A stretch of 64,000 bases of DNA, from positions 310,001 through 374,000 of the forward strand of contig NZ_QEIH01000005.1 of the NCBI RefSeq assembly GCF_003260195.1, read 5' to 3'. Positions within the stretch are counted from its first letter, which is position 1; each line of letters begins with the position of its first letter. The stretch comes from Lutibacter citreus. Lineage in GTDB: Bacteria; Bacteroidota; Bacteroidia; Flavobacteriales; Flavobacteriaceae. The translations under genes and the position numbers were made by a program. The notes beneath the pieces are model-generated. The model ran no database searches. It had not been told where the DNA came from and worked only from the letters and a program-made list of their open reading frames with translations. This document shows positions 15,801-17,892 of the stretch, in pieces.

Positions 15801-16476
15801 CTGTTTTTGGAGCAAATTGTTCAACGGTTGGTCCTTTTACAAAAGCAACATTATCTTTATATGCAGAAACGATATCGTTAGGGAATTGTTTAGAGGTTTC
15901 TTTAATTAATTTGAATAAAGAAGAAGGCATTTCCTCTCCATCAATAACAAAAGTTCCGTTAAATATTTTATGACGACAGTGTTCTGAATTTACTTGTGAA
16001 AATCCAAAAACCTCAGAGTCAGTTAGTTTTCTGTTAATTTTAGAGCTTAAATTATTTAAGTATTCAACTTCTTCATCACTTAAAGATAAACCTTCTTGTT
16101 TGTTGTAAGCTGCAATATCTTCAATATCTAAAACAGGTTCTGGTTGAATATGAATATCAAAAATTTCTTGGTGTAGCTTTTCATACTTTTGAAATATCAT
16201 TGGGTCAAAATCTTCTTCCCCGTTTGAAGTTGTGAATTCTTCAATTCTTAAGATTCCTTCAATACCCATATTTTGAGTAATTTCAACAGCATTGGTACTC
16301 CAAGGAGTAATCATTGCTGCACGTGGACCAATAAAAATAGCATCAATAGATTGAAGTTCTAGTTTTTCTTGATTACCAAAGAGCCAATTTAATTTTTGAG
16401 TAGTTTCTTGCGAAAGTTCTTTTGACGTTTTCACAGCAAATATTTTACCGTTTTTGTTCCCAAAGAAATGAATCAT
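12823..16476 (-). CDS. purL: Phosphoribosylformylglycinamidine synthase, single-chain form
   Basis: A 1217-aa large PurL catalysing the fourth step of purine synthesis (FGAR + ATP + glutamine to FGAM). The N-terminal domain, the two AIRS-like ATPase halves (motifs SVISIKAETHNFPTTVEPF and AGTAVYMTSYSR) and a C-terminal class I glutaminase domain with nucleophile Cys in SVGICNGCQLFMEL and a downstream SHGEGKF are all present. The length matches gamma-proteobacterial and Bacteroidetes single-chain enzymes. It is transcribed alone from a TAAATTTG -7 element on the reverse strand at 16512-16519. Confidence 0.97.
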   Translation of the reverse strand: MIHFFGNKNGKIFAVKTSKELSQETTQKLNWLFGNQEKLELQSIDAIFIGPRAAMITPWSTNAVEITQNMGIEGILRIEEFTTSNGEEDFDPMIFQKYEKLHQEIFDIHIQPEPVLDIEDIAAYNKQEGLSLSDEEVEYLNNLSSKINRKLTDSEVFGFSQVNSEHCRHKIFNGTFVIDGEEMPSSLFKLIKETSKQFPNDIVSAYKDNVAFVKGPTVEQFAPKTADKPDFYEKKDFKSVISIKAETHNFPTTVEPFNGAATGSGGEIRDRLAGGKGSLPLAGTAVYMTSYSRLEENRPWENGMQEREWLYQTPMDILIKASNGASDFGNKFGQPLITGSVLTFEHKEEARKLGFDKVIMQAGGIGYGKEEQALKDTPKEHDKIVILGGDNYRIGMGGAAVSSADTGAFESGIELNAVQRSNPEMQKRAANAIRGMVESDVNSIVSIHDHGAGGHLNCLSELVEDTGGLIDLDKLPVGDPTLSAKEIIGNESQERMGLVIGEKDADYLHRIADRERSPYYEVGEVTNNDRFTFQSKTTGEKPMDLELNDMFGSSPKTIMNDKTVTYNYGDLEYSIRNISTYLEQVLQLEAVACKDWLTNKVDRCVGGKVAKQQCTGPLQLPLNNCGVMALDYNGKEGIATSIGHSPIAALIDPAAGSRTAIAESLSNIVWAPIKNGLDGLSLSANWMWPCKNEGEDARLYKAVKSCSDFAIELGINIPTGKDSLSMKQKYPNDEVIAPGTVIISAAGNCTDVKKVVEPVLQKGGGSIYYINLSQDEFKLGGSSFAQTLNAIGSDAPTIKDADFFKKAFNTIQELILEGNILAGHDIGSGGLITTLLEMCFADTNLGLKIDFSVFEEKDIIKYLFSENIGIVFQAKEDKLIENKLKENYVSFYKLGTVTSEETLDFGPCKLDIPTYRDIWFKTSYLLDNKQTANGLAKDRYDNYKKQPLKYTFPTHFTGKTPEVDKSKPRPKAAIIREKGSNSEREMANAMYLAGFDVKDVHMTDLISGRETLEDIQFVGAVGGFSNSDVLGSAKGWAGAFLYNEKANTALQNFFKREDTLSVGICNGCQLFMELEEINPEHKVHGKMLHNDSHKHESNFTSVTIQENNSVMLSTLAGSTLGVWISHGEGKFNLPMEESAYNIVAKYGYESYPANPNGSDYNTAMMSSKDGRHLVMMPHIERSIFQWNWANYPAHRNDEVSPWAEAFVNAKKWIDSNK

Positions 16477-16838
16477 ACTTAAGTTAAGTTTAGTGTTTTG
16501 TTAGAAAAATGCAAATTTAATTAAATAATATAGAATGAAGTAGATTTAAAGGATAGAGATTTGGTAACTTATTAAAATAGTTTTTAACAAAAAATATGAA
16601 TTTAGTATATTTTAGGTTGTTGATTAACAGTTTATTATTGGTGTTTGTAAAAATAACGCAAACTAAAATATTTAAAAATGAATGAATGGAAATTAAATAT
16701 CCTAAGAGTTTTCTTCTTTAGAGATGAGTTTAATAAGGAAATAATTATAAGAATCTTATAAAAATTGTTAAATAATTAACATTAGAATAAGGGTTGTAAT
16801 TTTTTTTAAAATAATAATTAAATATTAAGTCAATTTGT
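16477..16838. other. Gene-free stretch between purL and the his leader
   Basis: About 360 AT-rich bases between two divergent promoters. The purL -7 element (reverse strand, 16512-16519) lies near its left end. No convincing gene is seen in the rest. Confidence 0.5.
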
Positions 16839-16846
16839 TATATTTG
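16839..16846 (+). promoter_or_regulatory. Predicted -7 element of the his operon
   Basis: TATATTTG fits TAnnTTTG exactly. The predicted start point (about 16851) leaves about 15 nt before the leader peptide ATG. Confidence 0.7.
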
Positions 16847-16866
16847 CAACTCAAAATAAATAAGAA

Positions 16867-16926
16867 ATGTTATTAATTCAATTACATCATCGTCATCATT
16901 TAAATACTTGCAATCAAGCGAAGTGA
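16867..16926 (+). CDS. his operon leader peptide with HHRHH
   Basis: A 19-residue open frame MLLIQLHHRHHLNTCNQAK ending in TGA, too short for ordinary gene finding. Four of five consecutive codons (16885-16899) are His codons. It sits between the his promoter and an intrinsic terminator ahead of hisG. It is almost certainly translated to sense charged tRNA-His, as in the well-known his leader peptides of enterobacteria. No Shine-Dalgarno sequence is visible, which is normal for this phylum. Confidence 0.85.
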   Translation: MLLIQLHHRHHLNTCNQAK

Positions 16927-16986
16927 AGATGTATTGAATTTAGTTAAAATATATTATAAACCCGTTTGAGTAAATCAAGCGGGTTT
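16906..16986 (+). promoter_or_regulatory. Histidine attenuator: competing hairpins and intrinsic terminator
   Basis: Four segments can pair in the classical way. Segment 1 is CTTG (16907-16910), just after the His codons. Segment 2 is TCAAGCG (16914-16920). Segment 3 is CGTTTGA (16963-16969). Segment 4 is TCAAGCGGGTTT (16975-16986). The 3:4 pair, extended by AAACC/GGTTT, makes a 12-bp terminator followed by a T run. The 2:3 pair is the antiterminator, because segments 2 and 4 share the identical TCAAGCG. The 1:2 pair is a short hairpin. A ribosome stalled on the His codons would cover segment 1 and free segment 2, allowing read-through. One ending at the TGA (16924) would cover segment 2 and allow termination. 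Confidence 0.8.
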
Positions 16987-17034
16987 TTATTTGTAAATCA
17001 AGCACGTTTACTTAAACACATTATTAAAAATAAG

Positions 17035-17892
17035 ATGAATAAAATTAAAATCGCAGTTCAGAAATCAGGAAGATTAAACGAAGATTCATTAAAATTATTA
17101 AAAGATTGTGGAATTTCAATTGATAACGGAAAAGATCAATTAAAAGCTTCATCTAGTAATTTTCCTTTAGAAGTACTGTATTTACGTAATGGAGATATTC
17201 CTCAATACTTAAGAGATGGAGTTGTTGATATTGCTATAATTGGTGAAAATGTATTAATTGAAAAAGGTACAGATATTGGAATTGTTGAAAAACTAGGTTT
17301 TTCTAAATGTAGAGTTTCAATTGCAGTACCAAAAGAAGTTGAATATAAAAGTATTCAAGATTTAAATGGAATGCGTATTGCAACTTCATATCCAAATACA
17401 GTATTAAATTATTTTAAAAAGTTTAATGTAACAGCTGATATTCACTTAATTAATGGTTCTGTTGAAATTGCTCCAAATATTGGATTGGCAGATGCTATTT
17501 GTGATATAGTTTCAAGTGGAAGTACATTATTTAAAAATAACTTAAAAGAGGTTGAAGAAATGTTGACAAGTGAAGCTGTATTAGCAGTTTCTCCAAATAT
17601 TTCTGAAGAAAACCAAGTGATTTTAGATAAATTACAATTTAGAATTCAAGCAGTTTTAAAAGGACGTAAATCTCAATATGTTTTAATGAATGCGCCAAAT
17701 GATAAAGTTAAAAGCATTATTAAATTATTGCCAGGAATGAAAAGTCCTACAGTGTTACCATTGGCAATTGAAGGGTGGAGTTCTATTCACACAGTTGTTG
17801 AGAAAAATTCATTTTGGAAAGTTATTGATGACTTAAAAGCGAGTGGGGCAGAAGGATTGTTAGTTATTCCAATTGAAAAAATGGTATTATAA
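17035..17892 (+). CDS. hisG: ATP phosphoribosyltransferase, long form
   Basis: First enzyme of histidine synthesis (ATP + PRPP to phosphoribosyl-ATP). The ATG at 17035 gives 285 aa starting MNKIKIAVQKSGRLNEDS, the family's normal start; the frame extends upstream to 16966, but that part lies in the attenuator terminator. The PRPP-binding segment around DIVSSGSTL is present. The C-terminal ~75 residues form the ACT-like regulatory domain of long HisG, so it should be hexameric and feedback-inhibited by histidine without HisZ. It heads hisGDCBHAF-IE. Confidence 0.97.
   Translation: MNKIKIAVQKSGRLNEDSLKLLKDCGISIDNGKDQLKASSSNFPLEVLYLRNGDIPQYLRDGVVDIAIIGENVLIEKGTDIGIVEKLGFSKCRVSIAVPKEVEYKSIQDLNGMRIATSYPNTVLNYFKKFNVTADIHLINGSVEIAPNIGLADAICDIVSSGSTLFKNNLKEVEEMLTSEAVLAVSPNISEENQVILDKLQFRIQAVLKGRKSQYVLMNAPNDKVKSIIKLLPGMKSPTVLPLAIEGWSSIHTVVEKNSFWKVIDDLKASGAEGLLVIPIEKMVL

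What the first reader, a model, noticed from the sequence alone, without database searches (positions are those of the whole stretch)
16839..17035. Complete histidine attenuator in a Bacteroidetes his operon
A 19-residue leader peptide with HHRHH is followed by segments that fit a textbook 1:2/2:3/3:4 attenuator. TCAAGCG occurs both at 16914-16920 and in the 3' arm of the terminator at 16975-16981, and both copies can pair with CGTTTGA at 16963-16969. The stop codon lies where a non-stalled ribosome would cover the first copy. Most his leader knowledge comes from proteobacteria and Gram-positives; in a phylum without Shine-Dalgarno sequences this is a compact and, to my knowledge, little described version. 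A third TCAAGC at 16998-17003 just before hisG may be a remnant or a further partner.
Basis: partly seen in the sequence, partly recalled or inferred. Interest (0 to 1): 0.8.

Follow-up and report, generated by a model that had tools for sequence, protein, structure and literature searches.

The report
Histidine-sensing switch before bacterial histidine genes
In front of the histidine-making genes of this bacterium (probably a Lutibacter) lies a short RNA switch that very probably senses histidine shortage through a stalling ribosome; relatives across its family carry the same switch, and it has an extra conserved pairing segment just before the first gene whose job is unknown.

Summary
A 19-codon leader (16867-16926, MLLIQLHHRHHLNTCNQAK) with segments A (16914-16920), B (16963-16969) and C (16975-16981) precedes hisG. 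A His-rich leader precedes hisG in 111 of 111 near loci and 79 of 89 wider loci (23 of 1780 shuffles); a covariance model finds the element in 274 of 299 family genomes. Terminator B:C covaries; antiterminator A:B varies too little among close relatives to tell but covaries across families. Folding gives the textbook logic: before C is made, A:B forms in 0.4-2.3% of free RNA, 99.6-100% with a ribosome stalled on the His codons, 0% with one at the stop. It is a ribosome-mediated his attenuator, outside Rfam, already hinted at in Flavobacterium psychrophilum (PMC9723704). D pairs with B plus the terminator loop in 161 of 202 distinct sequences, with loop:D covariation, about 15 nt before hisG. 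A post-terminator, perhaps translational, layer is inferred, not shown.

The parts
16839..16846 (+). Probable Bacteroidota -7 promoter element TATATTTG; transcript start inferred near 16853
   Evidence: TAnnTTTG lies in the 50 nt before the leader ATG in 29 of 82 distinct near loci (125 of 1640 shuffles), 24-30 nt before the ATG in 25 of the 29. Among the 30 rows that call printed the hits are mostly Lutibacter. The consensus is recalled, not from a call.
16867..16926 (+). Leader peptide ORF MLLIQLHHRHHLNTCNQAK, stop TGA 16924-16926
   Evidence: a His-rich leader in 111 of 111 near hisG loci and in 90 of 90 loci taken from the covariance-model hits
16885..16899 (+). Control codons His-His-Arg-His-His
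   Evidence: first His codon to A start is 26 nt in 117 and 23 nt in 58 of the 187 sequences (of 202) in which A was found
16875..16888 (+). Segment 1, before and into the His codons; pairs with 1'
   Evidence: Duplex -12.1 kcal/mol in the window; cognate mean -7.16 against -5.95 permuted, 0 of 2000, n=100; weak in some relatives (L149 -4.3, L201 -2.7)
16914..16920 (+). Segment A (TCAAGCG), antiterminator 5' side, inside the last leader codons
   Evidence: Pairs with B; 94.2% of cells paired in 88 distinct near sequences, without covariation; covaries across families
16928..16940 (+). Segment 1', after the stop codon; pairs either with segment 1 or with 16948-16955
16948..16955 (+). Partner of 1' in the hairpin enclosed by A:B
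   Evidence: Fold; this hairpin region: cognate -4.53 against -3.89 permuted, 0 of 2000, n=96
16958..16986 (+). Intrinsic terminator hairpin; 5' arm with B = 16963-16969, 3' arm with C = 16975-16981, T-rich tail after it
   Evidence: 98.2% of cells paired, 5 pairs with changes on both sides, 0 of 500 shuffles
17006..17017 (+). Segment D (GTTTACTTAAAC), complementary to 16964-16975 (B plus terminator loop); ends 17 nt before hisG
17035..17892 (+). hisG, first gene of the his operon
   Evidence: Pfam HisG match at this place in the own genome
17035..24796 (+). his operon, read by me as hisG, hisD, hisC, hisB, hisH, hisA, hisF, hisIE (names other than hisG from the translations, not from a family search)

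Best explanation
A ribosome-mediated transcription attenuator of the his operon, with an extra segment after the terminator. A ribosome translates the leader as RNA polymerase advances. With ample His-tRNA it reaches the stop codon, which lies 3 nt after A, and covers A; B then pairs with C and transcription ends. When His-tRNA is short it stalls on the His codons, A stays free, and A:B forms (enclosing the hairpin of 1' with 16948-16955) before C is made, so polymerase reads through. Without translation, segment 1 can pair with 1' and leave A in a loop, which favours termination. After read-through, D (17006-17017) can pair with B and the terminator loop; the most likely role, about one in three, is a second control on hisG translation in full-length mRNA, by a helix or pseudoknot near -15. 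Shown by comparison: leader, B:C, A:B across families, 1:1' (modest), D:loop. Inferred: translation of the leader, response to histidine, timing, and D's role. The confidence given is for the attenuator, not for D's role.
For: Leader conserved, with controls; element in 274 of 299 family genomes and 187 of 203 genera; B:C covariation; A:B across 57 terminator-arm types, mean -10.05 against -7.56 kcal/mol, 0 of 5000 permutations, and in 23 divergent types -10.53 against -8.25, 0 of 5000; 1:1' and inner hairpin above permuted pairs; fixed spacing, A ending 6 nt before the end of the stop codon in 158 of 187; folding states before C is made: A:B 0.4-2.3% free, 99.6-100% stalled, 0% at stop. trpE and pheA of the same genome also have WWW and FYFYFYF leaders. 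D: 114 distinct, cognate -11.87 against -8.62, 0 of 2000; 40 loop types, 0 of 5000; second set of 87, 0 of 2000; test of loop positions with D placed without them, 31 loops, 0 of 5000.
Against: No expression data. A:B shows no covariation within the near set: 85 of 2000 permutations as good, 0 pairs changed on both sides. Once C is made B:C wins in every modelled state, so the decision must be kinetic. Nested folding gives B:D no share unless C is unavailable (then 0.96-0.99), so D needs a pseudoknot, slow exchange or another factor. D is missing or weak in 41 of 202 distinct sequences. In the selected alignment two measures hardly separate D:loop from shuffles: pairs with double changes 231 of 500 and pair types 78 of 500. 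Ten of 89 wider loci fail the strict leader rule; three of them have no candidate at all.
Confidence: 0.92

Rival explanations
1. D is a lock, not a translational gate: in antiterminated mRNA it takes B from A and delays re-formation of the terminator hairpin (for example for mRNA stability), without acting on translation.
For: With C out of play and a stalled ribosome, B:D 0.96 against A:B 0.03; D:loop pairing conserved.
Against: Re-forming the hairpin after polymerase has left should not matter for transcription; D sits near the start codon (median 15 nt).
Confidence: 0.25
2. D is an element of DNA, such as one half of an operator, and not an RNA partner.
For: B and D form an inverted repeat in DNA as well.
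Against: Loop and D change together across 31 to 40 loop types; an operator bound by a conserved protein would be expected to keep its sequence.
Confidence: 0.05
3. A T-box or metabolite riboswitch controls the operon and the small ORF is incidental.
For: An intrinsic terminator in a 5' leader is common to these classes (established knowledge).
Against: No such Rfam family at gathering score in the window or in 20 relatives (the only two hits are tRNAs); His codons conserved.
Confidence: 0.03
4. The leader only feeds ribosomes to hisG by reinitiation, without attenuation.
For: Leader genes close to structural genes are proposed to do this (PMC4833913, passages).
Against: Stop to hisG is 72-120 nt in 90 distinct near sequences, longer than the 11-14 bp peak given there for Bacteroidetes, and a conserved terminator lies between.
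Confidence: 0.03

Closest known systems
Proteobacterial his operon leader, Rfam RF00514 (His_leader)
   Same: His-rich leader peptide, terminator and antiterminator before hisG (established knowledge); weak match over the whole model, 27.8 bits
   Different: Below the gathering score of 49 bits, and unrelated families score nearly as high (Qrr 23.6); the leader is not among the two weak hits of a whole-genome search; D is added
5' element before hisG in Flavobacterium psychrophilum and other Flavobacteriaceae (PMC9723704; section 19 and passages read)
   Same: Same family and same gene; the paper reports strong clues for leader-peptide attenuation before amino-acid operons and no Rfam hits. 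Very likely the same element
   Different: The section gives no structure, covariation, phylum-wide spread or D segment; its supplements could not be read here
Candidate his attenuators in Firmicutes (PMC9413887, passages)
   Same: Leader peptides with 3-5 His codons in a row and alternative hairpins
   Different: Firmicutes lineages; the word search found no 'Bacteroid' in the text; structures not compared here
vmlR leader of Bacillus subtilis (PMC9226507, passages)
   Same: Proposed antiterminator with a hairpin at its apex, an anti-antiterminator over the uORF, and a further stem-loop past the terminator that could hold back translation of read-through mRNA
   Different: Senses antibiotics; the late stem-loop hides a Shine-Dalgarno site; pairing of it with the terminator loop is not described in the passages seen

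Membership tests
Ribosome-mediated (leader peptide) transcription attenuator | Short ORF with codons for the operon's product | tested here: met
   111 of 111 near loci; 79 of 89 wider loci, 23 of 1780 shuffles. Translation itself not shown
Ribosome-mediated (leader peptide) transcription attenuator | Intrinsic terminator between leader and first gene | tested here: met
   Window; conserved; found in 145 of 170 sequences with an ATG-started leader
Ribosome-mediated (leader peptide) transcription attenuator | Antiterminator mutually exclusive with the terminator, supported by covariation | tested here: met
   Across families 0 of 5000 permutations; within the near set no covariation
Ribosome-mediated (leader peptide) transcription attenuator | Ribosome position decides the fold | tested here: met
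   In a folding model with masks of my choice only; spacing conserved
Ribosome-mediated (leader peptide) transcription attenuator | Read-through rises when the charged tRNA is short | not testable with these tools
   No expression data
Rfam RF00514 His_leader | Score at or above the gathering threshold of 49 bits | tested here: not met
   27.8 bits; no gathering hit in the window or in 20 relatives
T-box leader | T-box covariance model match at gathering score | tested here: not met
   No hit in the window; only two tRNAs in 20 relatives
Dual transcription and translation attenuator (vmlR-like) | A structure past the terminator that limits translation of the first gene | tested here: inconclusive
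   D pairing conserved near the start codon; nested folds do not predict it while C is free, and unpairedness of the start region hardly changes with it (0.67 to 0.63 free, 0.68 to 0.65 stalled, 0.52 to 0.46 at stop)

The most novel reading that the evidence does not exclude
The his leaders of Flavobacteriales are two-stage switches: after transcription attenuation, segment D invades the loop of the terminator hairpin in read-through mRNA and forms a pseudoknot or helix just upstream of hisG that shuts translation when histidine returns. To my knowledge it would be the first attenuator in which the terminator's own 5' arm and loop are re-used as a translational switch, in a phylum that (recalled) hardly uses Shine-Dalgarno sites.
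Probability: 0.3. Interest if true: 0.72.

Novelty: new variant of a known kind. Interest (0 to 1): 0.5.

Why it matters
It gives well-supported evidence for his leader-peptide attenuation in Bacteroidota, a phylum for which I found no Rfam leader match, and a model that recognises it in 274 of 299 family genomes. If it works as proposed, the leading ribosome and RNA polymerase must be coupled closely enough in Bacteroidota for attenuation, which this leader makes testable. The covarying segment D after the terminator is unexpected in a transcription attenuator and can be tested directly with loop and D compensatory mutants.

Tried and rejected
Membership in RF00514: rejected on score. The third TCAAGC at 16998-17003 as a partner: rejected, not conserved. 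A:B covariation in the near set: tested and not found; it needed divergent families. D elsewhere: among 21 loci with other terminator types, 20 outside the order and one Flavobacteriaceae metagenome-assembled genome (L102), 1 had a shuffle p of 0.05 or less, what chance gives; two more were too short to test. D before trpE and pheA: where a terminator was found it mostly ends too near the start codon (read, not tested). Leaders before thrA (13 of 20 loci had too little upstream sequence) and ilvD: none clear. Nested folding as proof of B:D: it does not show it while C is free.

Selection and errors to know. D was sought in 122 of 170 sequences, those with a CG(T/C)(T/C)TGA-type B and a recognised C; in the second set 3 of 90 loci were left out because C was not recognised. 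The second set overlaps the first: 209 rows gave 202 distinct leader-to-hisG sequences. In this AT-rich DNA gapless counts alone mislead: 29 of 70 control regions also reach 10 or more of 13 pairs, against 67 of 70 for D; energies and permutations separate better. The 58 rows of alignment A2 were picked for 13-nt loops, duplex energy of -9 or less, a D region of at most 60 nt and at most 4 rows per loop, so its 90.6% paired cells are biased upward; one search places D only by the six B bases and tests the loop bases, using 112 of 126 rows (those with a full six-base match). In one search the B:D indices were wrong; one search corrects them. One genome outside the class (G067) was fetched by mistake with the class-level set. 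Permutations do not correct for relatedness; the one-per-loop versions lessen but do not remove this.

Full report
What is there. The window is probably from Lutibacter (the nearest named relatives, at 84-91% HisG identity, are mostly Lutibacter). hisG begins at 17035 and heads a run of his genes to 24796. A gene that I read as purL starts at 16476 and runs the other way. Between them the + strand carries a leader ORF 16867-16926 and segments A 16914-16920, B 16963-16969, C 16975-16981. The terminator is the only terminator-like site found in 16400-17200.

Is it more than chance. Of 113 loci then held, 111 had a hisG match, and all 111 have a short ORF with at least three His within 260 nt (90 distinct; the window itself and some genomes occur twice among the 111). 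With a stricter rule and shuffled controls: 93 of 93 near loci against 16 of 1860 shuffles, and 79 of 89 wider loci against 23 of 1780. The 89 are the 30 best-scoring loci of the HisG search plus 59 fetched ones (28 same family, 5 same order, 25 same class, 1 other), out of 252 genomes with HisG; they are not a random draw. By the looser rule, which allows GTG and TTG starts, 87 of 90 including the window pass; L127, L145 and L165 have no candidate. A covariance model of leader and terminator (R1) finds the element in 274 of 299 genomes of the family, 187 of 203 genera, and once in the window's own genome.

How it folds. Terminator pairs: 98.2% of cells, five pairs with changes on both sides, 0 of 500 shuffles as good. 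Antiterminator A:B: 94.2% of cells in the near set but no covariation, since B is nearly fixed (85 of 2000 permutations as good). Across families the arm changes, and A changes with it: in 57 terminator-arm types the cognate A:B duplex averages -10.05 kcal/mol against -7.56 permuted, 0 of 5000; in the 23 divergent types -10.53 against -8.25, 0 of 5000. In some of these A overlaps the stop codon (for example L134). Segment 1 (16875-16888) pairs with 1' (16928-16940), and 1' can pair instead with 16948-16955 inside A:B; both exceed permuted pairings, 0 of 2000, though by little on average (-7.16 against -5.95 and -4.53 against -3.89). Spacing is tight: A ends 6 nt before the end of the stop codon in 158 of 187 sequences, and starts 26 or 23 nt after the first His codon in 175 of 187; A was found by pattern in 187 of 202.

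How it works. In folding models of the growing window RNA, before C is made, A:B forms in 0.4-2.3% of free RNA, 99.6-100% with a ribosome stalled on the His codons and 0% with one at the stop; once C is made B:C is 1.0 in all states. The decision is therefore kinetic, as established for this class of switch. The ribosome masks and the transcript start are my choice. The same genome has a WWW leader before trpE and an FYFYFYF leader before pheA, so the device is not confined to his.

The extra segment. D (17006-17017, GTTTACTTAAAC) is complementary to 16964-16975, that is, to B and the terminator loop, by 12 pairs including G-U (-12.8 kcal/mol). In 114 distinct relatives the cognate duplex averages -11.87 against -8.62 permuted, 0 of 2000; with 40 loop types weighted equally, 0 of 5000; 90 of 114 are in the best 5% of their own shuffles; the region between stop and B gives -3.45. 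A second, slightly overlapping set of 90 loci gave 87 usable rows, -12.75 against -9.37, 0 of 2000, and 68 of 87 at -9 or below. To avoid choosing D by its loop pairing, D was placed by its match to the six B bases only; loop positions 7-12 then pair in 84.2% of cells against 65.5% permuted (highest 70.2%), and with one row per loop, 31 loops, 79% against 59.6%, 0 of 5000. Counted on a MAFFT alignment of 58 selected rows: 90.6% paired against 23-48% when slid, 50 cells with changes on both sides against 17.9 shuffled, 0 of 500; loop pairs alone 83.4% and covariation score 0 of 500, but number of pairs with double changes 231 of 500 and pair types 78 of 500. In all, D is present at -9 or below in 161 of 202 distinct sequences. 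It ends a median 15 nt before hisG in the 92 first-set rows at -9 or below. It was not found in other orders: 1 of 21 tested loci at p of 0.05 or less.

What D might do. D exists only in RNA that has passed the terminator, so it cannot affect the termination decision. If C is unavailable B:D takes 0.96-0.99 and displaces A; with C free, nested folds give B:C. A rough sum of the lower terminator stem plus D:loop, without any pseudoknot penalty, is on average 0.7 kcal/mol below the full terminator (5-95%: -3.7 to +3.4), so with a penalty a pseudoknot is possible, not favoured. The position near the start codon makes a translational role my first choice, at about one in three; a lock on the read-through fold is next.

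What is known. No Rfam leader family reaches its gathering score in the window or in 20 relatives (two tRNAs only); RF00514 matches at 27.8 of 49 bits. PMC9723704 (section 19 read) reports strong clues for leader-peptide attenuation before amino-acid operons in F. psychrophilum and a conserved 5' element before hisG without Rfam hits; so the existence of the element is not new. PMC9413887 (passages) describes Firmicutes his attenuators; PMC2965389 (passages; no occurrence of 'Bacteroid') and PMC8305728 (passages; no occurrence of 'leader') show no Bacteroidota his leader in what I saw. Lopatovskaya et al. 2010 is known to me here only as a reference. Ten library searches listed no paper whose title or printed abstract start describes segment D; most subscription papers are not held.

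Noticed in passing
L212 (G000:C1, trpE) and L232 (G000:C35, pheA): The same genome has leader peptides MNNSLNMIWWWNSLIK before trpE, with a terminator, and MITNNTWNSFYFYFYFNNKR before pheA, where my scan found no terminator in this genome but did in some relatives.
   Followed up: partly
L120, L125, L128, L130, L132, L133, L137: Loci of another class have His-rich ORFs before hisG (some only with a GTG start) but my scan found no intrinsic terminator; Rho or translational control is possible.
   Followed up: no
L118, L119, L144, L146 (one family) and L173: Leaders end in a His-rich stretch followed by Ser-Ser and stop; L119 and L146 have an inverted repeat across the stop codon (ATTCCTCTTAAGAGGAAT in L119).
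   Followed up: no
L174, L178, L198: No terminator found; in L178 the His codons CACCATCACCAC face GTGGTG one codon later and could form a hairpin at the leader's end.
   Followed up: no
L290, L298, L299, L323, L329, L338, L342, L363: Some loci without a good D have GC-rich palindromes (such as CCCGCGAAGGCGGG in L323) between terminator and hisG, but similar ones also occur where D is kept (L296, L344).
   Followed up: no
L071, L080, L105, L106: A CAG to TAG change inside A shortens the leader but keeps the pair with B as U-G.
   Followed up: no
L045, L086, L188, L192, L193, L199: Relatives with the attenuator but no D; L045, L086 and L188 have a short stretch between terminator and hisG.
   Followed up: partly
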